This document shows, piece by piece, positions 1,710 to 31,752 of a DNA stretch of 64,000 nucleotides. The stretch's first letter is position 1; every line of letters starts with the position of its first letter. A program made the translations under genes and the position numbers. The notes beneath the pieces were generated by a model that did not search any database, was not told the origin of the DNA, and was given only the letters and a program-made list of their open reading frames with translations. This stretch comes from a virus: the IMG/VR virus record IMGVR_UViG_3300050020_000041, positions 1-64,000 of that record, one strand, 5' to 3'.

Positions 1710-1877
1710 GTTTATGCGATCCTCATTTTAAGCCCTATTCAAGCTATTAGAAGTGGCATCGCAGAATTATGTCCAAAGAAATTATCGGGCGGATTAAAAA
1801 AATCTTAGCACGGTATTTGAATGTTCTAAACTCAATACATTTTATAACAACCATAAACTGATAAAGGAGAAAACGTT
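1710..1877 (+). promoter_or_regulatory. Intergenic region before the ssDNA-binding gene
   Basis: This is a 168-base non-coding gap, one of the longest in the window. TGCGAT (1714-1719) can pair with a downstream ATCGCA across a loop of about 36 bases. The 3' half is AT-rich, including CATTTTATAACA near 1838, and ends in AAAGGAG just before the start codon at 1878. It is a plausible promoter region for the ssDNA-binding/helicase operon, but no -35/-10 pair or phage promoter is convincing by eye. Confidence 0.35.
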
Positions 1878-2519: not shown

Positions 2520-2538
2520 TTAGAGTCCTTTTCAAGAA

Positions 2539-2556
2539 GGCTCCCGCAGGGGAGTC
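2539..2556 (+). terminator. Hairpin after the SSB gene, possible terminator
   Basis: GGCTCCC, loop GCAG, then GGGAGTC forms a 7-bp stem with one G-U pair. It is followed by TTTGTATTCTT, a weak U-rich tract. Placed 20 bases after the SSB stop, it could partly terminate transcription so that SSB is made in excess of the helicase downstream. Confidence 0.5.
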
Positions 2557-2591
2557 TTTGTATTCTTCAAACAAATGATGTTGCGGATAGT

Positions 2592-3998
2592 ATGATGTTT
2601 GGAAGTCAGTTGGCAATCGATATACCGGTTGCTGAGAAAACAAAAATAATAATCGGCGCGGAAGCAATAGTTCCCAAGCACCTTGTTAATATGGACAAGC
2701 TTCGTAAGCTACTTACGGTTGTCAGTATCGACATGGGATATGGAAACTTCAAGGTAGAGCTATGGCACGAGGACATGTACGGGAACGTGGTTATACCGCG
2801 CTACTATGCAATGAAGGTGTTTTCTGGAAGACCAGACGTTGAATTTGAATATAGGGTTTCAGAGGGCACAAGAGTTGATTTTCCTTCGTTTGCTGGTACG
2901 TTACGACCGGTACAGGCACAGTTTGCACCCGATGTCCTCTCGGCTATGAAAAACGAGATGAACCTCGGCGGACTGGTAAACTTTGCGGTCGGAGGGGGCA
3001 AAACAATATTCGCGTTGTATCTGGCAAGTATGCTCGGGCTCAAGACTCTGGTAATAGTACATAAGGAATTTTTGATGGATCAGTGGACAGAGAAGATCCT
3101 CGGAAATCCTGCTAAAGGGATACCAGCATTTCTTCCGGGCGCGAGGGTTGGGAGGATTCAGCAGAACGTTTGCGATGTGAAAGATAAGCATGTTGTATTA
3201 GGAATGGTGCATTCGCTGGCCATGAAAGATAGTTATCCTGTTTCGATTTACGATGAATTTGGTCTTGTCATAACTGACGAGAGCCATCGTATGTCCGCTG
3301 CAACATTTTCTTTGGCAGGTCCAAAGTTCAGCGCAAAGTACAGACTAGCCCTGACGGCTACTCCTGATAGAAAAGATGGCACTAAGAATGTATTCATGTA
3401 CCATATCGGTCCGATGCTGGCTCAATACAACGTTGAGAATCTGGCGCCGATAATAAAAAGAGTTTTCCTCGATGAAGTGAAGTTCAGAGAGGGTTTCAAT
3501 CCCGACGTAATCCCTATGGGACGTTTAATGACGATGCTTGGGAAACATCAGAGAAGAAATCAAGTGATTGCGAATCAGATAGTAGACGCGGCGGTGGCGG
3601 GCAGAAAGTCCATCACGATGTCGCACAGATTAGAACAGCTTGACATCTTGAAAGATTATATCACTGCGATATTGAAGTCTCGAGGAATGGATTTGAGAAT
3701 TACGATGGGCAAATATGTCGGCGGAATGACTCAGACAGCCCTCGATAATTCAGCCACAAAAGACATTATACTTTCGACGTACACGATGGCGTCCGAAGGT
3801 TTAGATATCCCTGACCTCGATACGATATTCTTGGCAACGCCCATGAGTAGCGTACTGCAATCAATAGGAAGAATTTTAAGAGCCTGCGATGAGAAGAAGA
3901 AACCGATAGTGGTTGACTTCATCGATAAGAGCATAGGTCTGTGCGTAAAAATGTATAAAAAGAGAATGAAATTGTATCAATCAAAAGGATGGAAATAA
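2592..3998 (+). CDS. UvsW-like superfamily 2 DNA helicase
   Basis: The 468-residue product has two RecA-like lobes. Motif I is GGGKT (about residues 134-138). Motif II is a DESH box (about 229). Motif III is LTATP. Motif VI is SIGRILRA near residue 425. The order and the DESH box fit the UvsW/RecG/XPB-Rad25 group that remodels forks and Holliday junctions and unwinds R-loops in T4, helping the switch from origin- to recombination-dependent replication. T4 UvsW is of similar size (about 500 residues). The first 90 residues would be the substrate-recognition domain. No SD is clear before 2592, and ATG 2595 is an equal choice. Confidence 0.8.
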   Translation: MMFGSQLAIDIPVAEKTKIIIGAEAIVPKHLVNMDKLRKLLTVVSIDMGYGNFKVELWHEDMYGNVVIPRYYAMKVFSGRPDVEFEYRVSEGTRVDFPSFAGTLRPVQAQFAPDVLSAMKNEMNLGGLVNFAVGGGKTIFALYLASMLGLKTLVIVHKEFLMDQWTEKILGNPAKGIPAFLPGARVGRIQQNVCDVKDKHVVLGMVHSLAMKDSYPVSIYDEFGLVITDESHRMSAATFSLAGPKFSAKYRLALTATPDRKDGTKNVFMYHIGPMLAQYNVENLAPIIKRVFLDEVKFREGFNPDVIPMGRLMTMLGKHQRRNQVIANQIVDAAVAGRKSITMSHRLEQLDILKDYITAILKSRGMDLRITMGKYVGGMTQTALDNSATKDIILSTYTMASEGLDIPDLDTIFLATPMSSVLQSIGRILRACDEKKKPIVVDFIDKSIGLCVKMYKKRMKLYQSKGWK

Positions 3999-3999
3999 G

Positions 4000-4698
4000 A
4001 TGGCAAAAGTAACACCGAAAGAAGGTGCTGAAAAAAAACGTTCCGCAGCGGACATACTTGAGGACGTGGGAATATTCGAGCCGAAAGCTGGTCATGTAGA
4101 AGAACCTGCTGATCCGAAAGAATTTGATCCGGAAAATCCGGATAGTGAGAAACCTTGGGGCAAGACGTTCGGAAGTCCAGGAGAAAAGCTGAAGGAGGCT
4201 ATGACGGCTGTGAAAGAAGATCCAAAACCTGCAATAGTTCCTGTCGTAGAGGCGGAAAAACATATTACGCCTCCAGTGGGAAAGGAAGTAGTTACTGCGG
4301 CTGGCAAAATAATCGAGACAGTGGGTAAAGTACCTGAACCCGAGATAGTGCCGGTACAGATGAAAGGGCAGATAACTATTGAACGTAGTTACCACATCGC
4401 GAAACAGGAAGAACCAACTAAGTTTTCTACCAAGACGCTAGATACTCCGATCATGAGGTTCCTGACTCAGCCAGCAAAGGTTGCCGTGAAATACGGAGCT
4501 ACTCTGAACATGGGAAATTTCGAATCGGTAAGAGTTGATATCATGGTAGAAATGCCATGCTATAAAGAAGATGTCGATGAACTCTACAAGGTCATTGCGG
4601 ATTACACTGAATCGCTAATCACCGAGCATGTAGCTGAAATAAAAGATACGGCAAGCGGTGGTAAGAAAAAGGTCGAAGAAGAAGAAAAGCCTTGGTAA
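4000..4698 (+). CDS. Conserved phage protein of unknown function
   Basis: The product has 232 residues. Residues 1-120 are low complexity, rich in Lys, Glu, Pro and Val, and likely disordered. Residues about 125-215 form a compact domain containing a V-R-V-D-I-M-V-E-M-P-C-Y stretch followed by an amphipathic helix, a pattern I associate with hypothetical proteins encoded near phage recombinases. The end is Lys/Glu-rich. It starts one base after the helicase stop and precedes the recombinase gene, so an accessory role in recombination is plausible but unproven. Confidence 0.45.
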   Translation: MAKVTPKEGAEKKRSAADILEDVGIFEPKAGHVEEPADPKEFDPENPDSEKPWGKTFGSPGEKLKEAMTAVKEDPKPAIVPVVEAEKHITPPVGKEVVTAAGKIIETVGKVPEPEIVPVQMKGQITIERSYHIAKQEEPTKFSTKTLDTPIMRFLTQPAKVAVKYGATLNMGNFESVRVDIMVEMPCYKEDVDELYKVIADYTESLITEHVAEIKDTASGGKKKVEEEEKPW

Positions 4699-4706
4699 TT
4701 GAGAGA

Positions 4707-4731
4707 GGGCGCAACCGAGTGCGTTGCGCTC
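4707..4731 (+). terminator. Stable hairpin between orf4000 and recombinase
   Basis: GGGCGCAAC (4707-4715) and GTTGCGCTC (4723-4731) form a 9-bp stem with one wobble pair around a 7-base loop. There is no strong U-run after it (AGAAATCATTTT), so a processing or stabilising element is as likely as a terminator. Confidence 0.4.
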
Positions 4732-4762
4732 AGAAATCATTTTGTAAGACATTGGGAGAAGT

Positions 4763-6082
4763 ATGGCAAAGGTAGAAAAGGTTAAAGAACCAACGAAAGT
4801 GGTGATTAAGTCTGAGAAGACTAAGGTTATGGAAGTGGCAGTGGACGTGGCTGAAAAAGCTATCGGGGAAGTTATTGAGGAATTAGTCGGACCGAGATCT
4901 ATCGAACCGACAGGTGTAGTCGCTGAGGAAATGGTTAAGAAGGGAGTAATTGAAGAGACCGGCGAAATAATACGCAGGGAGCCGATCATTGATAAAAAGA
5001 CCAAGGCTGAGATAGCCAAAAAGATTTTAGGTCTGAAAGATGTAATGAAGGCTCTTGATAAAAAATTTGTTGCGGAAGGCGACAAATCAGAAAGAAAAAT
5101 AGTGGCGGTGGCTTCATCCGATACATGGTATCAGGTGGAAAGGATTCCTTCGGGAGTAATGGCATTTGACATAGCTACGTTTGGCGGAATACCAAAAGGA
5201 AGGTTGACCGAATTCGTGGGAGATGAATCAAGTTCGAAAACATCGATGGCTTTAAGAGTAATAGGACAGGCTCAGAAACAGGGACTATTATGCGCGTATG
5301 TCGACGTGGAAGGTACCATAGACAAGAAGTGGGCAGCTAATTTCTGCGACGTAGATAGCTTGCTGCTCTCGCAGCCTGTCAGCGGAGAGGAAGCTATGGA
5401 GATTGTAGACGCCCTGATAAGATCCGGTAGTGTCGATTTAATCATCGTTGATTCCATTGCAGCCATGACACCGATGACAGAAATTAAAAAGGGATTTGAT
5501 GAAGCGACGATGGGAGTGCTTGCCAAATTAGTCAACTTGGCTATGAGGAAGTGGGTATCCAGTCAGACATACGCTCTGAGAACGTTCAACAATCCTGTAA
5601 CGATTTTGTATATACAGCAGTATAGGCAAAAAGTGGGCTTTGTAATGGGAGATCCAAATATTGTTCCCGGAGGAATGGCTCAGCGTTTCGCTAAGTCATT
5701 ATCTGTCAAGATGTGGCATGGTAAAACACTCATGGAAAAGGAAACCGATAAACCGATATCCATTGATATGAACTTTAGAGTGGTGAAGTCCAAGGTATGT
5801 CCATCGAATATGTCCGGCACTTATTCCATGATGATTCGGGACGACGCACATTTCAGATCAGGTGATGTCAATGAGGTTGAAGCATTAAGAAAGCTATGCG
5901 TCAAGTACAATTTCATTGCTAAGACTGGAAAGAATTACGAGATCCTTAAAGAGGTTCCTGGAAAAGAAGACACGTTCCTGCACTGCCCCACACTTGAGGG
6001 CATCGACAAGATTTTCTTAGAGAATCCGGACGTGTTTGAATTATACAAAACAGAAATGATGGAATTTTTAATAGCATTATAA
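4763..6082 (+). CDS. RecA/UvsX-like recombinase
   Basis: The product has 439 residues. The ATPase core begins near residue 125. Walker A is GDESSSKTS (about 153-161), a variant G-x5-K-T loop. Walker B is VDLIIVDSIAAM (about 224-235). TILYIQQYRQK near residue 280 sits where the L2/DNA-binding region is expected. It would form the strand-exchange filament on SSB-coated DNA. About 115 residues before the core are Lys/Glu/Val-rich and not typical of UvsX, which is around 390 residues in T4. A GGGAGAA SD precedes the start. The neighbouring SSB and UvsW-like genes support the call. Confidence 0.8.
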   Translation: MAKVEKVKEPTKVVIKSEKTKVMEVAVDVAEKAIGEVIEELVGPRSIEPTGVVAEEMVKKGVIEETGEIIRREPIIDKKTKAEIAKKILGLKDVMKALDKKFVAEGDKSERKIVAVASSDTWYQVERIPSGVMAFDIATFGGIPKGRLTEFVGDESSSKTSMALRVIGQAQKQGLLCAYVDVEGTIDKKWAANFCDVDSLLLSQPVSGEEAMEIVDALIRSGSVDLIIVDSIAAMTPMTEIKKGFDEATMGVLAKLVNLAMRKWVSSQTYALRTFNNPVTILYIQQYRQKVGFVMGDPNIVPGGMAQRFAKSLSVKMWHGKTLMEKETDKPISIDMNFRVVKSKVCPSNMSGTYSMMIRDDAHFRSGDVNEVEALRKLCVKYNFIAKTGKNYEILKEVPGKEDTFLHCPTLEGIDKIFLENPDVFELYKTEMMEFLIAL

Positions 6083-6094
6083 AGTCAATTAAGT

Positions 6095-6120
6095 GCGGGC
6101 GGTTATTAAGGACCGTTCGC
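6095..6120 (+). terminator. Hairpin after the recombinase gene
   Basis: GCGGGCGGT (6095-6103) pairs with ACCGTTCGC (6112-6120): nine pairs, two of them G-U, around an 8-base AT-rich loop. No U-tract follows. It is similar in size and position to the hairpins at 4707 and 10042. Confidence 0.35.
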
Positions 6121-6150
6121 GAAATCATAAGATAAAAAAGGAAGGATACG

Positions 6151-6468
6151 ATGAAAGTTCTAACGGAAGGTCATTTTTACGAGTTGGATTCGATGGACGG
6201 AAGTTTCCCACAAAGAATCCAGTTTATCGAAAAGGTTCTCGGAGTAGATGGTAAAAGTTTTGTCACTTTGAACGATGGGACAACAAACGAGGAAGTCCTC
6301 GATGTTCTGATTGACAGGATGGAAATAATGTATGCGAAACTGCCGAATCAGGAAACTGAACTTGCTCTGGGCAACCTTAGAACGGCTTCTGAGTTGCTGA
6401 AGATGCGAACAAGGAAAAGAGTCCAGCAGGGAGTGGAGAATACTCCGCTCGATCATGTCAGTAATTAA
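6151..6468 (+). CDS. Hypothetical protein (105 aa)
   Basis: I do not recognise it. It is preceded by a good SD (AAGGAAGG). The product is a small acidic protein with a beta-rich first half (EGHFYELD; GKSFVTLNDGTTNEEV) and a helical second half ending in basic TRKR. The mix suggests a compact accessory protein, and its position between recombinase and GroES-like genes suggests an early role. Confidence 0.5.
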   Translation: MKVLTEGHFYELDSMDGSFPQRIQFIEKVLGVDGKSFVTLNDGTTNEEVLDVLIDRMEIMYAKLPNQETELALGNLRTASELLKMRTRKRVQQGVENTPLDHVSN

Positions 6469-6484
6469 CTAAGTAAGGATACGT

Positions 6485-6685
6485 ATGGAAACGAAAGAAG
6501 ATTTCAAGTATTGCGAGATACATGGGTTGGGAGACCGATGGTTATACAAGCAGTACGGTGACGGACGGATTGAGTTCAGAGATGAACTTGAGCCAGGTGC
6601 GGGTTACGAAAGATTTTTAACCGCTCAAATAAAAGAGCAAATCAGAAACAATGTAAAAGAGAGTTATCTCACGGAGGATATGTAA
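6485..6685 (+). CDS. Hypothetical small protein (66 aa)
   Basis: I do not recognise it. It is rich in aromatic and charged residues: a G-x-G-D-R-W-L-Y-K-Q-Y-G-D-G-R-I-E-F beta-hairpin-like stretch, then an amphipathic helix (AQIKEQIRNNVKE). The stop is directly followed by the start of the GroES-like gene, so the two are translated together. Confidence 0.5.
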   Translation: METKEDFKYCEIHGLGDRWLYKQYGDGRIEFRDELEPGAGYERFLTAQIKEQIRNNVKESYLTEDM

Positions 6686-6973
6686 ATGGTACTAATGACA
6701 CCTATGAACAATCGCGTTCAGATTGAAAAAATCGCTGCTGAAGAAGTGAAGCAGGGAATTATCATCCATGTAACCCAGCAGGAAGAGGCAAAAGCTAAAG
6801 TTGTCTCAGTTGGCGAGGATGGCGATGTAAAAACTTTTGTGAAGGTCGGCGATACAATCGTCTATCGTCCCAACAGCGTTGAAGAATTTTTGGTAAATGG
6901 AGAAACACTGTATTTCGTCCCAAGACATAATATCGTGGGTGTACTAACGGCAGCGGAAGTAGCTCCAGTTTAA
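6686..6973 (+). CDS. GroES-like co-chaperonin (gp31-type role)
   Basis: The 95-residue product is the length of a GroES subunit. It opens with MNNRVQIEKIAAEE, matching the GroES entry strand. QGIIIHV stands where the mobile loop returns (GIIIP in GroES). It continues AKVVSVGEDG, then VGDTIVYRP, and ends in a FVPRHNIVGVL strand. The family caps host GroEL; in T4, gp31 replaces GroES to fold the major capsid protein. No GroEL gene is present here, so it would use the host chaperonin. The mobile-loop segment is short, which is worth noting. Confidence 0.75.
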   Translation: MVLMTPMNNRVQIEKIAAEEVKQGIIIHVTQQEEAKAKVVSVGEDGDVKTFVKVGDTIVYRPNSVEEFLVNGETLYFVPRHNIVGVLTAAEVAPV

Positions 6974-22434: not shown

Positions 22435-23214
22435 ATGGTAAAGATCAACCCGGAAGGCGCAGGGACGCCAAGTTTTAATGGAGTGTTTAGGAGACCGTCT
22501 GCCAAGAAACCGGAGAGCCATCAGGCATCCCTGGAGACTTTAACATGTTTTCCTGAATTGAAAGCCAGGGTACAGGCGGGCTGGCCGTCCCAGAGAGTAG
22601 CGGATTACATCGAGACCACTTATCCAGCAGAATATGCAGGTCTGGGCATGGTCAAGGGAGAGTTAATCGATCACCTGAATTCGTTCAGAAAAGCATTGAC
22701 GCCACTGGAGACGGTGGCTATTCGTATGCCGGCTGAAGTAATCAAGGCAAAAGAGAAGATTGATGCAGGTCTGGATATCATGGCCGAGATGCAGGAGCTT
22801 TATGCGATCCAGAAGGGGCGTATCAATATTGATGTCGGTACAGAAAAGAAATTAAACAAGTTGTTTAAGACAACAGGAAATGAAATTGCGATAGCCGCAG
22901 CTCTGTTAAGAGATCTTGCTGCGATAATGGGAGATCTGGGAGTGAACAAGGGTAATCCGGGTGAAGAAGCGGCAGTAAGAAAACAGTTAATAACCGATTT
23001 CGGTTTGAAGTATGGGAAAGACTCGGTAGCCAAAGTGCTTAACGATCCAAGAGCAGTTTCCAAGGTATTAGGAGTGGCTGAGAGTTTATTCAAGTCCATA
23101 AGGGCTGGGGATGTGGCAGGTCTTCTTGCGGAAGTCCAGGCAGAAGAAAAGCCGGCGATGATAGAATTGCAAGTAATAGAAAAGAATGAAAAAGTATTAG
23201 AGGATGTGGTATGA
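22435..23214 (+). CDS. Possible terminase small subunit
   Basis: The product has 259 residues. Residues about 45-65 (GWPSQRVADYIETTYPAEYAG) look like a helix-turn-helix. The centre is long amphipathic helices (EKIDAGLDIMAEMQELYAIQ), as in the oligomerisation core of small terminases. Its position two small genes and one cargo gene before the large terminase supports this call, but there is no diagnostic motif. Its stop overlaps the start of the T9SS-tagged gene (ATGA), so the two are translated as a pair. Confidence 0.4.
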   Translation: MVKINPEGAGTPSFNGVFRRPSAKKPESHQASLETLTCFPELKARVQAGWPSQRVADYIETTYPAEYAGLGMVKGELIDHLNSFRKALTPLETVAIRMPAEVIKAKEKIDAGLDIMAEMQELYAIQKGRINIDVGTEKKLNKLFKTTGNEIAIAAALLRDLAAIMGDLGVNKGNPGEEAAVRKQLITDFGLKYGKDSVAKVLNDPRAVSKVLGVAESLFKSIRAGDVAGLLAEVQAEEKPAMIELQVIEKNEKVLEDVV

Positions 23215-23978
23215 AATGGTCAATATGGTTTATAGTGCTTTTGTCATATCAGGTATGCGCTCAGGATCTTTCGCTTCGGAAAAATAGCCCATGTAGAGGT
23301 GCTGGCGATACCGTAAAGGTAAATGGACAACGGATTAAGACGGATATACTGGGAAATCCAGTGCCTTATAATCATCCGGATCTTGGAGCTTATCAGTATC
23401 AGGAGCCGCTACCAGTGCAACTGATCTCTTTTAAGGGGAAAACTTTAAGAGACAATTACGTTGAGCTTGTGTGGGTGACAGCGACGGAAGTAAATTTTCA
23501 TGGATTTGAGATAGAAAGAAAACTTTGGATGGGCAGTCCCTGGGAGAAGATCGGCTTCGTGGCGGCCCAAGGGAATAGCAATAAGGGTAAAGAGTATATG
23601 TTCTCAGATAAGCTCTCCATGGCAGGGGTTATTGCTTATCGCCTGAATCAGGTGGACAACGATGGTGGCTCGGTACATTCGAATATTATCGTGGTGTCAA
23701 TGTTACCCAAGGAATTTACCGTCTCGAACTACCCGAATCCATTTAATCAAGAGACGACGATCAGATATTCGCTCCCCTATGACTGTAAGGTAAGACTGAC
23801 GGTCTATAATGTCATCGGGAGTAAGATAGAGTCATTCCCAGATGAAATGCGCACACAGGGCAGTTACGAGGTCAAATGGCGCGGTCGGTACGCCGGCGTG
23901 TATATCCTCGCAATGACGACCAAGCGGGCAAACGGAAATCAGCATACGGCAGCAATCAAAATGGTGTTACTGAAATGA
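23211..23978 (+). CDS. Secreted protein with T9SS type A sorting domain
   Basis: The product has 255 residues. A signal peptide covers residues 1-17 (hydrophobic core IWFIVLLSY, cleavage after VCA). Residues 26-64 match the end of a choice-of-anchor/parallel beta-helix domain (SPCRGAGD...DLGAYQYQ). Residues 67-165 form a beta-sandwich beginning LPVQLISFKG with TATEVNFHGFEIER, common in Ignavibacteria surface proteins. Residues 170-255 are a type IX secretion C-terminal domain: NYPNPFNQETTIRYSLP, VYNVIG, YAGVYIL and a final KMVLLK. It would cross the inner membrane by Sec and the outer membrane by host T9SS. It is coupled by ATGA on both sides to phage genes, so it is a settled phage gene, probably taken from a host. 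Confidence 0.8.
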   Translation: MKWSIWFIVLLSYQVCAQDLSLRKNSPCRGAGDTVKVNGQRIKTDILGNPVPYNHPDLGAYQYQEPLPVQLISFKGKTLRDNYVELVWVTATEVNFHGFEIERKLWMGSPWEKIGFVAAQGNSNKGKEYMFSDKLSMAGVIAYRLNQVDNDGGSVHSNIIVVSMLPKEFTVSNYPNPFNQETTIRYSLPYDCKVRLTVYNVIGSKIESFPDEMRTQGSYEVKWRGRYAGVYILAMTTKRANGNQHTAAIKMVLLK

Positions 23979-24103
23979 ACAAGTCTTTACGGGTTATAGG
24001 GTTTGGGCTAACAACGATTGGGGCTGTCGGTTTGTTTTCGACGGTTCTAATTCTGATAGCTATTGCAACGCATTATTCGACATTAAATGAACTAATAAAA
24101 TAA
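23975..24103 (+). CDS. Small single-span membrane protein (42 aa)
   Basis: ATG 23975 overlaps the stop of the T9SS-tagged gene (ATGA). The product has a short basic start (MNKSLR) and one hydrophobic segment of about 23 residues (VIGFGLTTIGAVGLFSTVLI and on), then a polar tail. It could be a holin-like or superinfection-related peptide, or a membrane partner of the upstream secreted protein. The sequence supports only a single transmembrane helix. Tight coupling argues that it is real. Confidence 0.5.
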   Translation: MNKSLRVIGFGLTTIGAVGLFSTVLILIAIATHYSTLNELIK

Positions 24104-24112
24104 GGAAGTACT

Positions 24113-24187
24113 ATGAAAGACCTAATAAAAGAAATGACTGAGATTATTCAAAGTCTTGAAAGAATCGCGACTAATAAAAAGAAATAG
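24113..24187 (+). CDS. Micro-protein (24 aa), recurrent helix motif
   Basis: ATG 24113 follows AAGGAAG with good spacing; TAG is at 24185-24187. The whole product is one amphipathic helix beginning MKDLIKEMTEIIQSLERI. Very similar helices occur in the micro-protein at 27373 and at the start of the HTH protein at 30528, which argues that this is translated and not chance. The function is unknown. It sits immediately before the large terminase start, so it could also act as a leader peptide that sets terminase translation. Confidence 0.4.
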   Translation: MKDLIKEMTEIIQSLERIATNKKK

Positions 24188-24192
24188 TCCCA

Positions 24193-25380
24193 ATGATAGA
24201 ACTCATTGATGGTCGTAATATAAGTAAACAGACTCCGGAGGAGGTACAGAAACTTCTAAAGAGGGATGTAAGGTCACTTTCACCTGAAGAGATGGAAGTG
24301 ATGCAGCTTATTATGGCTGAAATGACCGGCGGTAAAACTGGGTTACTTGAGCTAATGAACGAACTAGAGTTCCAAGAACCCATGGTAGATATCGAAACAT
24401 GGCTGACAGATCCGTACCACTTCGGAAAAGTGCATAACCTCTGGCCCAAGTTAATCGATGACATGATAGAGATGTTCAATGGAGAGTATTATGAGGTTAT
24501 TTTAACTGGTTCACTCGGCTGGGGCAAGACCTACATGGCTAAAATAGCAGCCTGCAGAGTGTTCTATGAGATGAGCTGTTTACGCAATCCGCAGAAGTCT
24601 TTTGGATTGGCTCCTGATTCCCTGATAGCATTCCTGGCGATTTCATTGTCAGAGCAGACTGCTCGTAAAGTAATCTTCGAAGATCTTCAGGGTATGCTCA
24701 CGATGAGTCCGTATTTCAACGAGAAGTTCAAACCGAAACTGACTCAGAAGGAAATAAGATTCCCGAATAACGTATGGGCGACTCCAGCTTCCAGTACGGC
24801 AAATGCAGGTATAGGAAGTAACGCAATCGGTGCAATCATGGATGAGTCGAACTTCTTGGGAGCTATGAGCAAGGAAATGAAGGCTTCACATGCCCGTCAT
24901 GGTCATGTAGATAATGCAGAGTTACTATATGCTCAGGTAAGTCGTAGAATCAAGTCCCGGTTTAACAAGTTTGGAAAAATGCCAGGGAAACTGTTTCTGG
25001 TTTCATCCAAAAGAACCACGACCGATTTTACTGAAAGAAGAATTGCTGAGGCAAGAGAAGATCCCAACGTATTCGTAAGAGAATATTGCTTAACTGGCGA
25101 CACTCCGATTAAGATCCCGCTGAAAGGCATAATTGCTATTAAAGATTTAGTCGGCGTGGAGAATTTTAGGACCGTATCGGTAGATCCAGCCACAGGTCAG
25201 GGCGTTCTGGGTAAAGGGCATTCAGCTCAGCGGACAGGAGTTAATGTCCCTGTTTATAAAATCACGATGGAAGATGGCTCTGTAGTGAAAGCTACGAAGG
25301 AGCATCCGTTCCTTATGAACGATTTAACTTATGTGGAACTTCAGAACTTAAAGGTGGGCGATGAATTGTTCAGCTTTTAA
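24193..25380 (+). CDS. Large terminase, N-terminal ATPase half plus split-intein N part
   Basis: The product has 395 residues. Residues 1-298 are the packaging ATPase: Walker A GSLGWGKT (106-113), Walker B IGAIMDE (212-218) and a coupling motif VSSKRTTTD near 270. At Cys299 the sequence turns into an intein N-terminal domain: CLTGDTPIKI (block A), then VVKATKEHPFLMND (block B) and LKVGDELFSF, after which it stops. The C-terminal nuclease half is encoded separately at 26193 with the matching intein C part. Trans-splicing would give a TerL of about 649 residues; T4 gp17 has 610. It powers DNA translocation into the prohead. The downstream gene overlaps the last 20 bases. Confidence 0.85.
   Translation: MIELIDGRNISKQTPEEVQKLLKRDVRSLSPEEMEVMQLIMAEMTGGKTGLLELMNELEFQEPMVDIETWLTDPYHFGKVHNLWPKLIDDMIEMFNGEYYEVILTGSLGWGKTYMAKIAACRVFYEMSCLRNPQKSFGLAPDSLIAFLAISLSEQTARKVIFEDLQGMLTMSPYFNEKFKPKLTQKEIRFPNNVWATPASSTANAGIGSNAIGAIMDESNFLGAMSKEMKASHARHGHVDNAELLYAQVSRRIKSRFNKFGKMPGKLFLVSSKRTTTDFTERRIAEAREDPNVFVREYCLTGDTPIKIPLKGIIAIKDLVGVENFRTVSVDPATGQGVLGKGHSAQRTGVNVPVYKITMEDGSVVKATKEHPFLMNDLTYVELQNLKVGDELFSF
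25087..25380 (+). other. Split intein, N-terminal fragment (Int-N, 97 aa)
   Basis: It begins at Cys (25087-25089), directly after extein residues VFVREY. Block A CLTGDTPIK and block B with the T-x-x-H-like ATKEHPFL are present, as is a terminal K-V-G-D-E-L strand that normally precedes the endonuclease or linker site of mini-inteins. The fragment size (97) is typical of natural split Int-N domains (about 90-105). It pairs with the 36-residue Int-C at 26193. Confidence 0.85.
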
Positions 25381-25852
25381 CATAGCGGAAGAGTCGCCCA
25401 AGAACCATCTGGAAATGATATCGAAACTTTATACTGGCGATTCAGATCTGTATGCATGGCAGGCGAAATTAGTGAAGGCGGTGAAGGTTGTCTCGGTAGA
25501 GAAGATCCCTGAAATAGCCAATGACGTTTATAGGCTGATCAAAATGTTCCAGGCGAAGCAGTGTTACCAGAATGCTTATCAGGTGGCTTCGCACATATCG
25601 GGAGTCGAATATGTCGAGGGCTTCGCAGATATAGTCGGAATACCGATTGACCATGCTTTCAACGTCTACAAAGGTCAGTATTTCGATGTGACGGGCGAGC
25701 TGGTATTGAAAAGAGAAGTTGAGAAGGACGTTTATTTCAAGGTTATGACGTATAGCCACAGCGAAATGAACAAGTTGGCGGTAGCGACAGGCACGTATGG
25801 TGGCTATCTGAAGGCGTATTACAAGTTATTTATTAAAAAAGAAGCAGCATAA
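25361..25852 (+). CDS. Gene inserted between terminase halves, orf1 (163 aa)
   Basis: It overlaps the Int-N stop by 20 bases, so it is translationally linked; a later ATG at 25415 is possible. The product has Cys68 (QCYQNA), His98 (IDHAFN) and Asp109 (YFDVT) in the order Cys-His-Asp, with the phrase VEGFADIVGIPIDHAF found in phage hypothetical proteins. This layout suggests a papain- or transglutaminase-like fold, but that is inference. No LAGLIDADG, GIY-YIG, HNH or Vsr-like endonuclease motif is seen, so it is not an obvious homing endonuclease. Confidence 0.5.
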   Translation: MNCSAFNIAEESPKNHLEMISKLYTGDSDLYAWQAKLVKAVKVVSVEKIPEIANDVYRLIKMFQAKQCYQNAYQVASHISGVEYVEGFADIVGIPIDHAFNVYKGQYFDVTGELVLKREVEKDVYFKVMTYSHSEMNKLAVATGTYGGYLKAYYKLFIKKEAA

Positions 25853-25861
25853 GGAGAAGTT

Positions 25862-26191
25862 ATGAAAGAGGTTAAAATAAGTTCGCTGGCAGAAGATTTT
25901 GAAATACTGGGTGGGAAAGTTCCGGAAGATTTGATCCCTTCGATTATGGAGGAAAAGAGATTGGCGGAGAAAGGAGTTTATTCGAAATTGAAACTGGGCG
26001 ATACTATTGTTGGTGATGATGGGAAACCAGTGTTGAACGCCGGCACTATAGAAGTATTGGTATTGGACAATGCCACCATGGAGAAATTAAAGGATGGTAG
26101 CATCAGATTTGTCGGGGAATTTAATGGCAAGCAATCGCAATGGATATTCTCTGCGAAAGAACTCAAGGCAATAGCGGGATTCTTGAAATAA
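25862..26191 (+). CDS. Gene inserted between terminase halves, orf2 (109 aa)
   Basis: I do not recognise it. A strong SD (AAGGAG) precedes it. The product is small with a helical first 40 residues and beta-rich LGDTIVGDDGKPV, AGTIEVLVLDN and GSIRFVGEFNGKQSQWIF, possibly a small beta-barrel. It has no nuclease motif. The stop is one base before the start of the C-terminal terminase half, so all four cistrons are one transcription unit. Confidence 0.5.
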   Translation: MKEVKISSLAEDFEILGGKVPEDLIPSIMEEKRLAEKGVYSKLKLGDTIVGDDGKPVLNAGTIEVLVLDNATMEKLKDGSIRFVGEFNGKQSQWIFSAKELKAIAGFLK

Positions 26192-26192
26192 C

Positions 26193-26300
26193 ATGAAGCG
26201 CATCGCAAAAATAGAATTTGATGGTAATGAAGATGTCTATGATATCGAGGAAGATAGCTGTCATAATTTCACGCTGGCAAATGGATTAGTAGTCCATAAC
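26193..26300 (+). other. Split intein, C-terminal fragment (Int-C, 36 aa)
   Basis: It contains block F VYDIEEDSCHNFTLANGL and block G VVHN followed by Ser+1 in the extein: the penultimate His and terminal Asn needed for Asn cyclisation, and a Ser nucleophile. The length of 36 matches natural split Int-C fragments (about 35-40). It starts with its own Met and a basic MKRIAKIEF lead, as in other naturally split inteins. Confidence 0.85.
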
Positions 26301-27356
26301 AGTCAGTGGGGAGCTAAGGATGCTAAGATATTCATGCCTGAGAGGTTTAAGGTGCTGGTCGGTAATTCAGTATTATCTTCTAAGGTATTGGAAGATGGAG
26401 AAGATGTCACTGAATACGAGGGTATGGAAGAAGTTCAGATTATCGATGTACCCATGGACTTCTATGATGATTTTATGAGAGATACCGATACAGCATTGAG
26501 AGATCTTGCCGGAGTAAGTACGGTGGCTATTACGCCGTTTATAAGGAACCGTAAGAAGATCATGGATGCAGTAGATAATACTTATCAGCATCCGTTTACT
26601 CAGGAAGTCTGGGATATGACTGACAGAGGTAAGTTCCTGACAGAAGCATTATTTAAGATTAACGAGTTTGGTGAAAGAGTACCAAGATTTCACCCGGAGG
26701 CATCCCGTCATGTCCATATTGACGCTTCATTGAGGGGAGATGCCACTGGGCTAGCTATCGGGCACATTTACGGATACAAAGAGATCCGGAAAAAGGTCGG
26801 TCCGATAGTAACGGTGGAAACACGCCCGCTGATTCAAATCGACCTGATGTTAAGGATTCATCCAAGGATGGGAGAAGACATAATTTTCCAGGATATCAGG
26901 AAGTTGATATACGCTTTGCATGAAATGGGAATGCCCATAAGATACATATCGATGGATTCGTACCAGTCTGCGGACAGCATCCAGGCGTTCAAAGCCCGCG
27001 GATACGAGTCGGAAGTAGTGTCGGTAGATAGACCGATGAAGGCTTATGATACATTGAAGCAAACTTTATATGAAGACCGTTTGAAAATGTACCCGTATCA
27101 GCCGGCTCAGGAAGAATTAAGAAGATTAGAATTTAATGCATATAAGGGAAAAGTCGACCATCCCGATGATTATTCAAAGGATGTAAGCGACGCAATCGCT
27201 GCGGTAGTATTCACGCTGGCGACGAAATACCCAGGTGAAGGCACTTCATTTTATTCGGAGTCATCGAGAAGTAAGCCGGGCGAAAGAATAAGTGCTTCGG
27301 CGGAGGCTGAGGATGCGGGCGATTCAGGTTTTGATGGGTTTGTTCAAGTAGATTAA
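26193..27356 (+). CDS. Large terminase, split-intein C part plus nuclease half
   Basis: The product has 387 residues. Residues 1-36 are the intein C-terminal domain ending in LANGLVVHN with Ser37 as the +1 extein residue. From Ser37 (SQWGAK) the terminase resumes. Residues about 175-345 form the RNase H-like headful nuclease: HVHIDASLRGDATGLAIG (first acidic strand), YISMDSYQSADSIQAFKARG (second Asp) and DDYSKDVSDAIAAVVF (third Asp cluster). It would cut concatemeric DNA during packaging after being spliced to the ATPase half. The tail is Ser/Glu-rich. No strong SD is visible, so translation may depend on coupling to orf2. Confidence 0.85.
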   Translation: MKRIAKIEFDGNEDVYDIEEDSCHNFTLANGLVVHNSQWGAKDAKIFMPERFKVLVGNSVLSSKVLEDGEDVTEYEGMEEVQIIDVPMDFYDDFMRDTDTALRDLAGVSTVAITPFIRNRKKIMDAVDNTYQHPFTQEVWDMTDRGKFLTEALFKINEFGERVPRFHPEASRHVHIDASLRGDATGLAIGHIYGYKEIRKKVGPIVTVETRPLIQIDLMLRIHPRMGEDIIFQDIRKLIYALHEMGMPIRYISMDSYQSADSIQAFKARGYESEVVSVDRPMKAYDTLKQTLYEDRLKMYPYQPAQEELRRLEFNAYKGKVDHPDDYSKDVSDAIAAVVFTLATKYPGEGTSFYSESSRSKPGERISASAEAEDAGDSGFDGFVQVD

Positions 27357-27372
27357 AATAAGGAGAAATGTT

Positions 27373-27462
27373 ATGGCAACTGAACTGAAAGACCTAACTG
27401 TAGAGCTGGACGAAATCATCCAGCAGTTAGAAAAGAAACCAGAGCCGGTACCAGCGAAGTAA
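27373..27462 (+). CDS. Micro-protein (29 aa), recurrent helix motif
   Basis: ATG 27373 follows AGGAGAAA. The product is MATELKDLTVELDEIIQQLE followed by a short Pro-rich tail (KKPEPVPAK). The K-D-L-x3-(E/D)-x-x-(E/D)-I-I-Q-x-L-E pattern repeats that of the micro-protein at 24113, so the pair brackets the split terminase. The function is unknown; a coiled-coil partner is a reasonable guess. Confidence 0.4.
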   Translation: MATELKDLTVELDEIIQQLEKKPEPVPAK

Positions 27463-27480
27463 ATCTTGGAACGGTTATTG

Positions 27481-27494
27481 GTGTTATATAACAC
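27481..27494. promoter_or_regulatory. Perfect 14-bp palindrome, operator candidate
   Basis: GTGTTATATAACAC reads the same on both strands. It lies in a 126-base non-coding gap between the terminase block and the SWIM-finger gene, with a further AT-rich run downstream. A dimeric regulator binding site or part of a promoter is plausible. No second copy was noticed in the window. Confidence 0.4.
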
Positions 27495-27588
27495 GACACG
27501 TATTATGCAGTGATTATAAGTAAAGATTTGAATGGGATAAGGCAAGCAAGAACGGATGTCAACGATATGACTTTATGTGAAATAAAAT

Positions 27589-28704
27589 ATGTTAACGATG
27601 AGTTCAGAATTAGATCTGTTGATAGAGGTTCTTGCGAAGCCCTACAAGTATCTGGGGAATTTACTGCCCGGAGACGGTACTCGTACTCTCGCCTTCCAGC
27701 CGGACGGTAGAGAGCCATTCAAAGTCTTAACGAAAATCAGGGATAACGGTAAGTCGTTCGCAATTCATTTTGATGATGATGCGGGCTCGGCTGAAGTTAC
27801 AGGAAAGGGTGATGCATTCCGAATACTATCCACGGTAATCCAGATCGCAAAAGATTATGTGAAGAAGGTGAAGACCATTGAGGAGATCTGGATTATCGCG
27901 AAGTATGAAGAGGGCGGCAAGAACTCCAGAGCCAAGCTTTATAAAGCGTTAATCGATAAGTTCGCAGAGAACGAAGGCTTCAAGCTGGACAAAACTGAAA
28001 TGCATACCAGTAAGGGGATAGAGTATATGACTTACATTCTGAAGAAGAATGCCGTGGAGGAGGAAGTAGTCATGTATAAAGCGTTCACTAATGCAGTCCG
28101 CACTGATGAGACTCCCAACAAAGACGGTTATATCGAGACTACAGCATCTTCCGATAAGGAAGCTGTCAAGAATCTGAAATATAAGATTGCTGGGCTTATC
28201 ACGACCATTCAGAGCGAACGTCTGAAGAAACAGAAAGATATTAAGCTCAAGAATCTTCAGAAATATGCTGACGGTAAATGGGGACTGGTAGAGTCCTTGA
28301 TTCAAGCTATGATGGAAGAAAGAAGTATAGCTCAGTTAATGAAAACAACGCCCAGGCGTTTTAAGCTGCGGGCGGAAGATATTAAACCGACACTTCTGAA
28401 CATCACCCAAGCTGGCAAGTTAATTTATAAGACGGTTACAGAAAGTAACCATCACGTTCACAGACAGTATATAAAGCCTCTGCCGAATGTTAAGGGATTA
28501 ACTACGATCAGCCAGAATGTAATACTGCATTGCAACTGCGAAAATTTCACATTTGAAAATGAATACAGTTTATGGAAGACCAACGCAAGCCATATAGTAA
28601 ATTCGATCATGGAGCCACCGTTAAAGACCAACCCAGGAATGAAAAAGAAAGTTTGTAAACATTTGATAGCGGTCTTCGAAGACCTGAAAAAGAGGTTAAG
28701 CTAA
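27589..28704 (+). CDS. SWIM zinc-finger protein between terminase and portal
   Basis: The product has 371 residues. The C-terminal 60 contain CNCENFTF, then TNPGMKKKVCKHLIAV, forming C-x-C-x38-C-x-H, a SWIM-type zinc site with a long insert as found in some T4-like phage proteins. The N-terminal 250 residues are mixed alpha/beta with many Lys and no recognised enzyme motif. SWIM fingers bind DNA or protein partners; a role in packaging or head assembly is suggested by its position but not shown. The start is uncertain: 27589 and 27598 are both ATG and neither has a clear SD. Confidence 0.55.
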   Translation: MLTMSSELDLLIEVLAKPYKYLGNLLPGDGTRTLAFQPDGREPFKVLTKIRDNGKSFAIHFDDDAGSAEVTGKGDAFRILSTVIQIAKDYVKKVKTIEEIWIIAKYEEGGKNSRAKLYKALIDKFAENEGFKLDKTEMHTSKGIEYMTYILKKNAVEEEVVMYKAFTNAVRTDETPNKDGYIETTASSDKEAVKNLKYKIAGLITTIQSERLKKQKDIKLKNLQKYADGKWGLVESLIQAMMEERSIAQLMKTTPRRFKLRAEDIKPTLLNITQAGKLIYKTVTESNHHVHRQYIKPLPNVKGLTTISQNVILHCNCENFTFENEYSLWKTNASHIVNSIMEPPLKTNPGMKKKVCKHLIAVFEDLKKRLS

Positions 28705-28705
28705 T

Positions 28706-30466
28706 ATGGCAGGAATTAAGAATTTAGGCTTTATAAAGTTACTGTTCAGCGATCAGACTGACACGCCGGCAATAGATCCAAAAACAGGTCAAGCTCCAGT
28801 ACGAGTAGCAGCAGGCGGAGCAGCGTCATCGTTGTATGTCAGACACGGCTATGAAGACTTGTATGAACATTTGAAGGTAAGTCAGGATCTGATCACCCGA
28901 TATATCGATTACGAAAATATGGATGATAGCGATCCCATCATAGGAAGCGCATACGATATTTACGCTGATGATGCAACCCAGATGGATTATAAGCTGAAGA
29001 AAACCATGTGGGTGGACTCGCTTGATGATACTACGAGGACGTACCTGAATAACTTCCTTGATAATACCCTGAAGGTAGAAGAGAATATTTGGGAACAAGC
29101 CAGAACGATTGCAAAATACGGTAATGATTTTGAAGCCATCCTGTATGATGATAAGGGCGTTAATGGTCTTGACTTTATTAGTCCAGCTATTGCCAGGAGA
29201 TATGAAGTCGGTGGGAAGACAGCATTTGGTGTCGATTACCAGGGCAAGTTCAATTACAAAGATCAGGAAGTTATTGATGCGGTAGCCGGGAATGTCAGAC
29301 ATCAGGAGTCCTCGACCTTCTTCGATAACTGGGAGATGATTCATTTCAGACTCAGGACCAAGAATCGCGGAAGCAGATATGGATTCGGATTAGCCGAGAA
29401 CGCAAGATGGGCATGGAAACGGTTACAGTTGTTAGAGGACGCCACGATACTGTATAAGATTACGAGATCTCCCAACAGACTGGTTTATTATGTAAATACT
29501 GGCAACAAGTCACCGAAGGAATCCAAAGCCTTCATGAAAGAACTTCAGAGAGAGTATCGAAAGAAGAGTTATATCAATCCAAGAACGGGCAAGTTGGAGT
29601 TCTCAACGAATCCGCTCGCTCAGCAGGAAGATATCTGGGTTGGTGTACGCGACTCGAAAGATCCGACCAGAATAGAGAATCTTCCAGCACTGGATTACCA
29701 GAGCCTTGATGAATTGTCGTATTACAGGAATAAAGAATTCGCGGGATTAAAGATTCCCAAGAGATTCCTGACCTACGATGAAACGGCAGATTCCAGAACA
29801 GCTGGTTCCAACGAAGATATCCGTTTCGCAAGAACGGTATTAAGGCTTCAGAGGGAGCTGCTGGTCGGTTATAATAAGATTATCGGTGTAGATTACTCGA
29901 TAAGGGGCGTCGACTACAGAAAATTGGACTATACTCTTAAAATGGCTGTCCCATCGACGGCATTTGAGATAGCCAATCTGGAAGTAGAAAATACCAAGGT
30001 GGCTCTTGCCGCTCAATTAGATCCGTTCGTCTCTAAGGAATGGATTTTAACAAGGATACTGGGTATGGCGGAAGCAGATGCTAAGGTAGTGCTCAGACAG
30101 AAGACCAGTGAGGTAAGTGCGGATCTGAAGGCTCAAAACGCTGCATTACAGGCAAGCCCACCAGCAGAAGAATCCACATACACTCGTGGCAACATGTTAA
30201 GGGAAGCGATGTTGGTTGGTAGAGAGGATAAATTACGTAATTCCCGTGAATGGGCGGTAAGGGAGAAAAATCTCGACAAGAGATTAAATGAAATCATGGA
30301 CAGTAACTATGTCAATGGTGAAAAATTTAAGGATATGAAAAAGCTCATGTCTCAGATCCTTGAGATGCAGAAAGGTATCAAGATTTCAGGAAAGAGGTCA
30401 AGTTTCGGTGGTGGCGTGGAAGATGATTCAGAAGGTAGAGTAGATGCGTCGAAGTATTTCGAATGA
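28706..30466 (+). CDS. Portal protein (gp20-like)
   Basis: The product has 586 residues; T4 gp20 has 524. The N-terminal part has IGSAYDIYADDAT, the conserved D-I-Y-A-D-E-A-T stretch of T4-type portals, then DNTLKVEENIWEQARTIAKY and a GNDFEAILYDD strand. The clip region follows (NPRTGKLEF), and RFLTYDETADSR fits the segment before the long stem helix. Twelve copies would form the head vertex pore through which terminase pumps DNA. It starts one base after the SWIM-finger gene, in canonical order before prohead core, protease and capsid genes. Confidence 0.85.
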   Translation: MAGIKNLGFIKLLFSDQTDTPAIDPKTGQAPVRVAAGGAASSLYVRHGYEDLYEHLKVSQDLITRYIDYENMDDSDPIIGSAYDIYADDATQMDYKLKKTMWVDSLDDTTRTYLNNFLDNTLKVEENIWEQARTIAKYGNDFEAILYDDKGVNGLDFISPAIARRYEVGGKTAFGVDYQGKFNYKDQEVIDAVAGNVRHQESSTFFDNWEMIHFRLRTKNRGSRYGFGLAENARWAWKRLQLLEDATILYKITRSPNRLVYYVNTGNKSPKESKAFMKELQREYRKKSYINPRTGKLEFSTNPLAQQEDIWVGVRDSKDPTRIENLPALDYQSLDELSYYRNKEFAGLKIPKRFLTYDETADSRTAGSNEDIRFARTVLRLQRELLVGYNKIIGVDYSIRGVDYRKLDYTLKMAVPSTAFEIANLEVENTKVALAAQLDPFVSKEWILTRILGMAEADAKVVLRQKTSEVSADLKAQNAALQASPPAEESTYTRGNMLREAMLVGREDKLRNSREWAVREKNLDKRLNEIMDSNYVNGEKFKDMKKLMSQILEMQKGIKISGKRSSFGGGVEDDSEGRVDASKYFE

Positions 30467-30503
30467 TGATGATTAAGCTAAGTGCACACAATTTCGCAAC
30501 GAT

Positions 30504-30511
30504 TATAAATC
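30504..30511 (+). promoter_or_regulatory. TATAAATC, candidate late promoter -10
   Basis: The octamer differs by one base from the T4 late promoter sequence TATAAATA and lies 17 bases before the HTH gene, in a non-coding gap. An identical octamer occurs at 30926 before the prohead core gene. Evidence is the shared octamer and placement only. Confidence 0.3.
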
Positions 30512-30527
30512 TATTTGTAAGAAACGT

Positions 30528-30767
30528 ATGAAAGAATTGATAAACCAGATGAATGATATCATGACTAATTTGCAAGACTATAGACTACATGTTCACTCGG
30601 TAGCATCCAAGCTCGGATGCAGTACAAGGACTGTGTACCGTCTAATCGAAACGGGAGAACTGAAAGCTATAAGAAAGACTCCCCGTAATACACGGATAAG
30701 CGAAAGTTCGTTTGTCGAATATGCTAACAAGCGATTAACTGAAGCTACGGCAATCCCCTGCATTTAG
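30528..30767 (+). CDS. Small excisionase/MerR-type HTH protein
   Basis: The product has 79 residues. Residues 20-65 read VHSVASKLGCSTRTVYRLIE, then GELKAIRKTPRNTRISES, the standard HTH_17/excisionase winged helix in which the wing follows G-E-L-x-A. It probably binds DNA as a regulator. The first 16 residues, MKELINQMNDIMTNLQ, resemble the micro-proteins at 24113 and 27373. A DNA-binding protein between portal and prohead-core genes is unusual for T4-type order and may regulate head-gene expression. It has flanking non-coding gaps on both sides. Confidence 0.6.
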   Translation: MKELINQMNDIMTNLQDYRLHVHSVASKLGCSTRTVYRLIETGELKAIRKTPRNTRISESSFVEYANKRLTEATAIPCI

Positions 30768-30954
30768 GGACACAGATGCCATAAGGACGTCCGTTCCATT
30801 GACAATAGGGATTCGATGTTCGTAAACTTGTTTTAAGATTGTGCAAGGCTTATGCCTTTAATTCTGTAAGTGCTCTAACTGATGATTTAAGTAAGTGGTT
30901 CGTGTTAAGTGAGAAAGAAAATTACTATAAATCAAAAGTTAGGAGAAGATCAGA
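30768..30954 (+). promoter_or_regulatory. 187-base gap before prohead core gene
   Basis: There is no credible gene in either strand. It contains a short hairpin AAGGC-TTAT-GCCTT (30845-30858), TATAAATC (30926-30933) as a late-promoter candidate, and a clear SD (AGGAGAAG) near 30941. It likely serves to start transcription of the abundant head proteins downstream. Confidence 0.4.
30926..30933 (+). promoter_or_regulatory. TATAAATC, second late-promoter candidate
   Basis: It is identical to the octamer at 30504, positioned 22-29 bases before the start of the prohead core gene and just before its SD. It is one base from the T4 late consensus TATAAATA. T4 late promoters use only such an octamer. 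Confidence 0.35.
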
Positions 30955-31752
30955 ATGAAAAAAACACATGTTCTAACCTCATTGGACGAAGACTTAATAG
31001 CATTAGGTCTGGTTACTCCAATCGTGGAAGCAGTTGTTCCCGCAGTAGTCCCCGCAGTTATTCCCGCAGTAGTCCCCAAAGTTATTCCCGCAGTTGAACC
31101 AGCTTCAAATCTTGATGAAATCAAGATACTCAAATTGAAGACCGGCTCGGCAGCTCGTTTAGCTAAGAAAAAAGCTAAGAGATACTACAAACAGAACAGA
31201 AGCAAACTGAAATCTAAAGCAAAGAAATTCAGACACTCTTCTGCCGGTAAAAAAAGTCTATTCAAAAGAGCGAAAGCAATCAAAAGATTAGGCATTGCTA
31301 AAATCACCGCAATTCACAAATCCGGAAAAAGAATCTCTCTTGCAGCTTCCGTCCAGGATGAAGCATTAGAAGTTTTACAAAAAATGTCCCAGATACTCGC
31401 TCTTGTTGAGGAAAATGTGACACCATTGTTTGAAAGTGAAGATGCATTGGTTCAGGAATACATTGAGTTCATAGCTGACGGCTCAGAAGAAATATCTGAA
31501 GTCATCGAAGATCTCGAAACTGAAATCGAGGAAGCTACCGAGGAACTCGACGAAGAAGCAGTTGAAGAAGTATTATACGAACTCGCAGAGGAAGTATACG
31601 AAATGCTCGATACCTATGCCGACTTAATCGCAATCAACGAGGATGCAGATCCTGAAGTTGTTCCTGCGGTTGTCCCAGCAGTAGTTCCTGCGGTCGTTCC
31701 TGCAGTAGTTCCCGCGGTTGTTCCCGCTGTAGAACCAGCAGCAGTCGTTTAA
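30955..31752 (+). CDS. Prohead core protein with VVPA repeats
   Basis: The product has 265 residues. It starts in the slot of T4 gene 67/68. Residues 27-50 are six VVPA-type tetrapeptides. Residues 60-115 are very basic (RLAKKKAKRYYKQNRSKLKS), resembling T4-type prohead core proteins. Residues 130-230 are acidic and helical. The last 30 residues are seven more VVPA/VEPA units. It would be an internal scaffold packed in the prohead and cleaved by the protease encoded two genes later. T4 gp67 is only 80 residues, so this is much larger and differs in having the repeats. Confidence 0.5.
   Translation: MKKTHVLTSLDEDLIALGLVTPIVEAVVPAVVPAVIPAVVPKVIPAVEPASNLDEIKILKLKTGSAARLAKKKAKRYYKQNRSKLKSKAKKFRHSSAGKKSLFKRAKAIKRLGIAKITAIHKSGKRISLAASVQDEALEVLQKMSQILALVEENVTPLFESEDALVQEYIEFIADGSEEISEVIEDLETEIEEATEELDEEAVEEVLYELAEEVYEMLDTYADLIAINEDADPEVVPAVVPAVVPAVVPAVVPAVVPAVEPAAVV
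31033..31104 (+). repeat. 12-bp coding repeats, block 1 (six VVPA-like units)
   Basis: Six in-frame 12-base units encode VVPA, VVPA, VIPA, VVPK, VIPA and VEPA near the N-terminus of the prohead core protein. Units differ mainly at third codon positions, so the protein pattern rather than the DNA is being kept. Confidence 0.85.
31657..31740 (+). repeat. 12-bp coding repeats, block 2 (seven VVPA-like units)
   Basis: Seven in-frame 12-base units encode six VVPA and a closing VEPA at the C-terminus of the same protein. Third positions vary (GTT/GTC/GTA, CCT/CCC/CCA), suggesting selection on the peptide. Both blocks end in VEPA. Confidence 0.85.

What the first reader, a model, noticed from the sequence alone, without database searches (positions are those of the whole stretch)
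24193..27356. Large terminase broken by a split intein with two unrelated genes between the halves
The ATPase half ends at Cys299 with an intein block A/B, and the nuclease half starts with a 36-residue intein C part ending VVHN-Ser. The exteins join into a complete TerL of about 649 residues. Between them lie two genes with no homing-endonuclease motif. Fractured genes with split inteins and inserted genes are known for a few phage/metagenome replication proteins. A split packaging motor, where trans-splicing gates ATPase-nuclease joining, with non-nuclease cargo, looks new to me. It may time packaging or exclude a competitor phage.
Basis: partly seen in the sequence, partly recalled or inferred. 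Interest (0 to 1): 0.92.

Follow-up and report, generated by a model that had tools for sequence, protein, structure and literature searches.

The report
Phage terminase split by split intein
A phage's DNA-packaging motor gene is broken in two by a natural split intein that should splice the protein halves back together; the arrangement is already known, but here the gap holds two genes that are not the usual homing endonuclease.

Summary
TerL is encoded as 24193-25380 (ATPase part + 97-aa IntN) and 26193-27356 (36-aa IntC + nuclease part). Both pieces pass NCBIfam intein cut-offs. Joined, they align end to end with a DnaE intein structure. The exteins form a 649-aa TerL with no gap at the junction; 71 relatives read straight through that site. 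Two more IMG/VR contigs carry the same intein, one showing the whole split layout, and selection on IntC and TerL is purifying.

The claim of novelty mostly fails. Naturally split TerL inteins are published (AceL-TerL, GOS-TerL). I also found split TerL genes in Lactobacillus phage CL2, Bacillus phage SP-15 and IMG/VR contigs L056, L117 and L127; in all but SP-15 a homing endonuclease gene lies in the gap.

What is unusual is the insertion site, not seen in other relatives, and the cargo. ORF163 belongs to a widespread phage family with invariant Cys/His/Asp, perhaps papain-like. ORF109 is an orphan. No endonuclease was detected.

Best reading: a fractured essential gene repaired by protein trans-splicing, whose endonuclease slot now holds ordinary phage cargo. 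No evidence supports timing of packaging or exclusion of a competitor.

The parts
24193..25086 (+). TerL N-extein, 298 aa, with Walker A (GSLGWGKT, 106-113), Walker B (IGAIMDE, 212-218) and coupling motif (VSS, 270-272); ends VFVREY
25087..25377 (+). Intein N part, 97 aa: Cys1, block B TxxH (ATKEH); stop at 25378-25380
   Evidence: TIGR01445 34 bits > 24.5, PF14890 profile 11-92; intein panel
25361..25852 (+). ORF163, cargo gene 1: phage family with invariant Cys68, His98, Asn101, Asp109; possibly papain-like; overlaps the end of IntN by 20 bases (AAAGGTGGGCG ATG)
25862..26191 (+). ORF109, cargo gene 2: orphan, strong Shine-Dalgarno (AAGGAG), under purifying selection
26193..26300 (+). Intein C part, 36 aa, starts with its own ATG and ends VVHN (penultimate His, terminal Asn)
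   Evidence: TIGR01443 21.3 bits > 15.6, PF14890 profile 122-155, 7 synonymous and 0 nonsynonymous differences from L001
26301..27356 (+). TerL C-extein, 351 aa, starts at Ser+1 (SQW); nuclease motifs HIDASL, SMDSYQS, KVDH..SKDVSDA
28706..30466 (+). Context: T4-type portal protein, next large gene of the packaging module
   Evidence: PF07230 E 1.2e-55

Best explanation
The only terminase large-subunit gene found in this contractile-tailed phage is fractured by a canonically split class-1-type intein (Cys1 / His-Asn / Ser+1). The two halves are translated separately from one gene row. IntN and IntC then associate into a Hint fold, excise themselves and ligate Tyr298 to Ser299, restoring a 649-aa TerL with ATPase and nuclease. 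The break lies where contiguous relatives carry a homing endonuclease. The likeliest history is an endonuclease-bearing intein (or a free endonuclease placed in an intein) that fractured TerL, followed by loss or replacement of the endonuclease by two phage genes, ORF163 and ORF109, now carried inside an essential gene. Shown: anatomy, intein signatures, exact extein register, conservation. Inferred: splicing in vivo, loss of the endonuclease, benefit of the cargo. The confidence given is for trans-splicing restoring TerL; for the replacement history alone it is about 0.55.
For: Curated intein N and C models above cut-off, with exact boundaries. Joined pieces align end to end with a solved DnaE intein. 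Joined exteins give one uninterrupted alignment across the junction; 71 TerL relatives read through the site without an insertion, with the residue at Ser299 being S in 32, T in 17 and A in 10; close relatives read VFVREYSLW and FFVREYSTW. Cys1, TxxH and HN are kept across eight TerL inteins. IntC 7 syn / 0 nonsyn and TerL-N 18 / 1 against L001, C-extein 29 / 6 against L021. No other TerL in the record. Contiguous relatives in L060 carry extra domain sequence at this break point, HNH-like in intein 2, and split relatives carry HNH or GIY-YIG genes there.
Against: No protein evidence of splicing. The close copies differ little, and the IntN-ORF163 tract is too similar to measure selection (0 syn, 1 nonsyn each). 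No intermediate with an endonuclease at this same site was found, so endonuclease loss is inferred from other sites.
Confidence: 0.85

Rival explanations
1. The halves do not splice. TerL works as two separate chains, ATPase and nuclease, held together by the intein pieces, like genes-in-pieces ribonucleotide reductase, which keeps function as two peptides.
For: A two-peptide phage enzyme split by an endonuclease is on record (Friedrich 2007, cited in PMC10448857). The N half holds all ATPase motifs and the C half all nuclease motifs.
Against: Cys1, TxxH, His-Asn and Ser+1 are all kept and IntC is free of amino-acid changes against L001 while carrying 7 synonymous ones; a mere dimerisation clamp would not need them.
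Confidence: 0.08
2. The split is a regulatory gate: splicing rate or cargo proteins decide when a working motor appears, so packaging is timed. (This adds to trans-splicing rather than replacing it.)
For: Intein control of packaging has been proposed for the two inteins of cyanophage Mic1 TerL (PMC7156551); the cargo genes lie in the same gene row.
Against: No direct evidence; promoter- and terminator-like sites in the region are at chance level. Absence of the insert from other relatives and endonuclease genes at the same break point in other phages point to a mobile-element history.
Confidence: 0.08
3. The cargo is itself a mobile or competitor-excluding element with an unrecognised endonuclease.
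For: Split relatives carry HNH or GIY-YIG endonucleases in this slot; ORF109 has no recognisable relatives.
Against: ORF163 belongs to a phage family found outside intein settings with invariant Cys/His/Asn/Asp; no nuclease or defence match for either ORF.
Confidence: 0.08
4. Assembly or frameshift artefact.
For: The source is a metagenome contig.
Against: The same layout occurs in L001; another variant ends in the IntC tail in L021; all four frames are open with start signals.
Confidence: 0.01

Closest known systems
AceL-TerL and GOS-TerL natural split inteins (metagenomic phage TerL)
   Same: Naturally split inteins in phage TerL; trans-splicing rates measured for both (PMC11766414)
   Different: They are atypically split (IntN 25 or 37 aa, IntC 104 or 115 aa); here the split is canonical (97 + 36). 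Their sequences were not at hand, so insertion site and cargo could not be compared.
Fractured genes with split inteins (Dassa et al. 2009: gp41, IMPDH, NrdA/NrdJ; recalled, the paper is not held)
   Same: Essential gene broken inside an intein at the endonuclease position, with a gene between the halves
   Different: Different host protein; here no endonuclease is recognisable and two other genes are present
Split TerL of Lactobacillus phage CL2 and IMG/VR contigs L117, L056, L127
   Same: Canonical IntN-stop after a TerL piece; in CL2, L117 and L056 a gene and then an IntC-led second half follow
   Different: Gap holds an HNH gene (CL2, L117, L127) or a GIY-YIG-like gene (L056); other insertion sites; L127 ends before an IntC
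Bacillus phage SP-15 TerL
   Same: Split intein in TerL with a gene of no recognised family (SP15_025) between the halves
   Different: Site near Walker B; a second, contiguous intein before Walker A and a further break
Split PolB intein of Pseudomonas phage MIJ3
   Same: Phage gene in two halves around a gap gene (PMC6892783)
   Different: DNA polymerase B, HNH endonuclease in the gap

Membership tests
Naturally split intein (class 1, canonical split) | Cys/Ser at position 1 and a matching N-terminal splicing region | tested here: met
   Cys299; TIGR01445 34 bits > 24.5 from model position 1
Naturally split intein (class 1, canonical split) | Block B TxxH | tested here: met
   ATKEH in IntN, aligned in 8 of 8 TerL inteins compared
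Naturally split intein (class 1, canonical split) | C-terminal His-Asn followed by Ser/Thr/Cys | tested here: met
   VVHN-Ser; TIGR01443 21.3 > 15.6
Naturally split intein (class 1, canonical split) | The two pieces make one Hint domain, split at the endonuclease position | tested here: met
   By sequence only: joined match to 7qil 2-133; break where L060 intein 2 carries its endonuclease region.
Naturally split intein (class 1, canonical split) | Trans-splicing activity | not testable with these tools
   Needs co-expression or proteomics
Terminase large subunit | Walker A, Walker B, coupling motif, nuclease acidic residues | tested here: met
   Invariant K112, D217, E218, D439, D517, D592, D595 in alignments
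Fractured gene of the Dassa type | Homing endonuclease gene between the halves | tested here: not met
   No nuclease family for ORF163 or ORF109 in Pfam, PHROGs, NCBIfam or PADLOC
Atypically split TerL inteins (AceL/GOS-TerL) | Short IntN of about 25-37 aa | tested here: not met
   IntN is 97 aa; sizes from PMC11766414
Papain-like cysteine hydrolase (ORF163) | Cys-His-Asp/Asn triad in a papain-like fold | tested here: inconclusive
   Invariant C68, H98, N101, D109 (counting nearly invariant N71, E86, A99 apart); confident model, pLDDT 91.6; the best PDB folds include papain-like ones (SseI, LapG, VASH, RavD) but E >= 0.08 and TM <= 0.3

The most novel reading that the evidence does not exclude
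The split intein has lost its endonuclease and become a stable carrying site: unrelated phage genes, one of them possibly a cysteine hydrolase, are kept because they sit inside an essential trans-spliced gene, and one of them may control splicing or packaging.
Probability: 0.15. Interest if true: 0.65.

Novelty: new variant of a known kind. Interest (0 to 1): 0.42.

Why it matters
It adds a canonically split intein at an insertion site not seen in 71 relatives, in a protein whose split inteins are already used as labelling tools. It shows that the endonuclease slot of a fractured gene can hold other genes, which bears on how split inteins persist once mobility is lost. It also warns that terminase genes ending in an IntN (CL2, SP-15, ON840061) are annotated as whole or hypothetical genes.

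Tried and rejected
Group I or II intron as the cause of the break: no Rfam match in 23000-31000. Homing endonuclease or defence gene in the gap: none. ORF109 function: orphan in the phages collection (best E 0.9) and IMG/VR apart from the near-identical copy; single-sequence AlphaFold poor, pLDDT 43. ORF163 against PDB by profile: nothing. Recombination tract marking intein transfer: the L001-identical stretch runs from 24720 to 26008, with two differences, and is not bounded by the intein, so no claim. Comparison with T4 gp17 to place the AceL-TerL site: hhalign found no useful match. A homolog with an intein at the same site outside this lineage: none among 71 spanning relatives.

Full report
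What is there. The first codes for 298 residues of TerL with Walker A, Walker B and the coupling motif, then a 97-residue IntN ending in a stop. The last starts with a 36-residue IntC and continues as the nuclease part. Two genes of 163 and 109 codons lie between. ORF163 overlaps the IntN end by 20 bases, ORF109 has a strong ribosome site, and the ATG of the last gene follows the ORF109 stop by one base.

Intein test. TIGR01445 starts at Cys299 with 34 bits (cut-off 24.5) and TIGR01443 covers the IntC end with 21.3 bits (cut-off 15.6). Pfam PF14890 is hit in complementary parts, each below its own cut-off. IntN alone finds a DnaE intein at 23.5 bits; IntN+IntC finds it at 48.8 bits over the whole length. 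Cys1, TxxH and His-Asn are shared by all eight TerL inteins compared.

Extein test. Joined exteins (649 aa) give one piece of 318 bits against Agrobacterium phage JP1, where each half gives 162. Among TerL relatives from IMG/VR, phages and one genome contig, 71 read through the junction without an insertion; the residue at position 299 is S in 32, T in 17, A in 10. The closest uninterrupted relatives, about 40% identical, read VFVREYSLW or FFVREYSTW where the window has VFVREY/SQW. ATPase and nuclease residues are kept.

Not an artefact. L001 carries all four genes with 94 to 99.8% identity per segment. L021 starts with the last bases of an IntC differing from both the window and L001; it comes from the same sample as L001. 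Selection on IntC (7 syn / 0 nonsyn), ORF109 (8 / 1) and TerL-N (18 / 1) is purifying. The 77.8-kb record has no other TerL and no other intein, so the split gene is probably the working one. The surrounding genes are a T4-type portal, prohead protease, major capsid protein and sheath, i.e. a contractile-tailed phage. A Por_Secre_tail match just below cut-off hints at a Bacteroidota host.

The cargo. ORF163 belongs to a family spread over phages, as a single gene or a domain of longer proteins, with invariant Cys68, His98, Asn101 and Asp109. Its model is confident, pLDDT 91.6. The best PDB folds include papain-like ones (SseI, LapG, VASH, RavD) but none is significant, so a cysteine hydrolase is only a suggestion. 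None of its fetched relatives lies next to intein or TerL pieces. ORF109 is an orphan. Neither matches a nuclease or a defence family.

How common. Lactobacillus phage CL2: TerL+IntN, HNH gene, IntC. Bacillus phage SP-15: TerL in pieces, with a split intein around SP15_025, which matches no Pfam or PHROGs family. L117: split at the last nuclease motif with an HNH-like gene. L127: IntN, then an HNH-like gene, contig end. L056: split near Walker B with a GIY-YIG-like gene. L060 and L067 carry several contiguous TerL inteins. HNH and GIY-YIG calls for L117, L127 and L056 are by eye from sequence motifs. Published: AceL-TerL and GOS-TerL, split PolB of MIJ3, two inteins in Mic1 TerL, TerL inteins in crAss-like phages, and terminases noted as common intein targets (PMC8228797).

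Mechanism. Translation of the two halves, association of IntN and IntC, excision, ligation Tyr298-Ser299: likely, not shown. The endonuclease slot being refilled with other genes is inferred from the other sites. Timing of packaging or exclusion of a competitor is not supported by anything found.

Verdict. A real split TerL intein, a new variant of a known kind. Two features stand out: an insertion site unseen in 71 relatives, and non-endonuclease cargo.

Noticed in passing
L011 (Lactobacillus phage CL2, KR905067) 506-2760: TerL annotated as complete ends in an IntN; HNH gene and IntC with the TerL tail follow, so the gene is an unannotated split-intein gene.
   Followed up: partly
L016 (Bacillus phage SP-15, KT624200) 1316-6870: TerL in three annotated pieces: one contiguous intein before Walker A, one split intein near Walker B with unassigned SP15_025 inside, and a further break holding an endonuclease-like gene.
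   Followed up: partly
L117 5488-6770; L127 5374-6212; L056 5601-6700: Further split TerL inteins with endonuclease-like genes between the pieces (L127 ends before an IntC).
   Followed up: partly
L056 5199, 5439, 7390: TGA codons inside TerL, at least one where a relative has Trp, suggest TGA read as Trp in this phage.
   Followed up: no
L060 4986-9491; L067 2094-7751: TerL reading frames of 1502 and 1886 codons with several contiguous inteins each.
   Followed up: partly
L109 7097-10019: Portal gene with a contiguous intein carrying an HNH-like region.
   Followed up: no
L012 (ON840061): Rat faecal TerL submitted as complete ends in an IntN, so the C half is missing.
   Followed up: no
L014 (Rhodobacter phage RcTiptonus) 991-4131: 1046-aa TerL with a contiguous intein at Walker A whose first residue appears not to be Cys (GGGK/RLAVDTP).
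   Followed up: no
L080 652-2871: A GIY-YIG-like endonuclease region is fused in frame upstream of an ORF163-type domain.
   Followed up: no
L002 2183-3235 compared with window 23211: L002 has an extra 350-codon gene, 73% identical in part to window 23472-23978, next to the 255-codon gene with the sorting-tail match.
   Followed up: no
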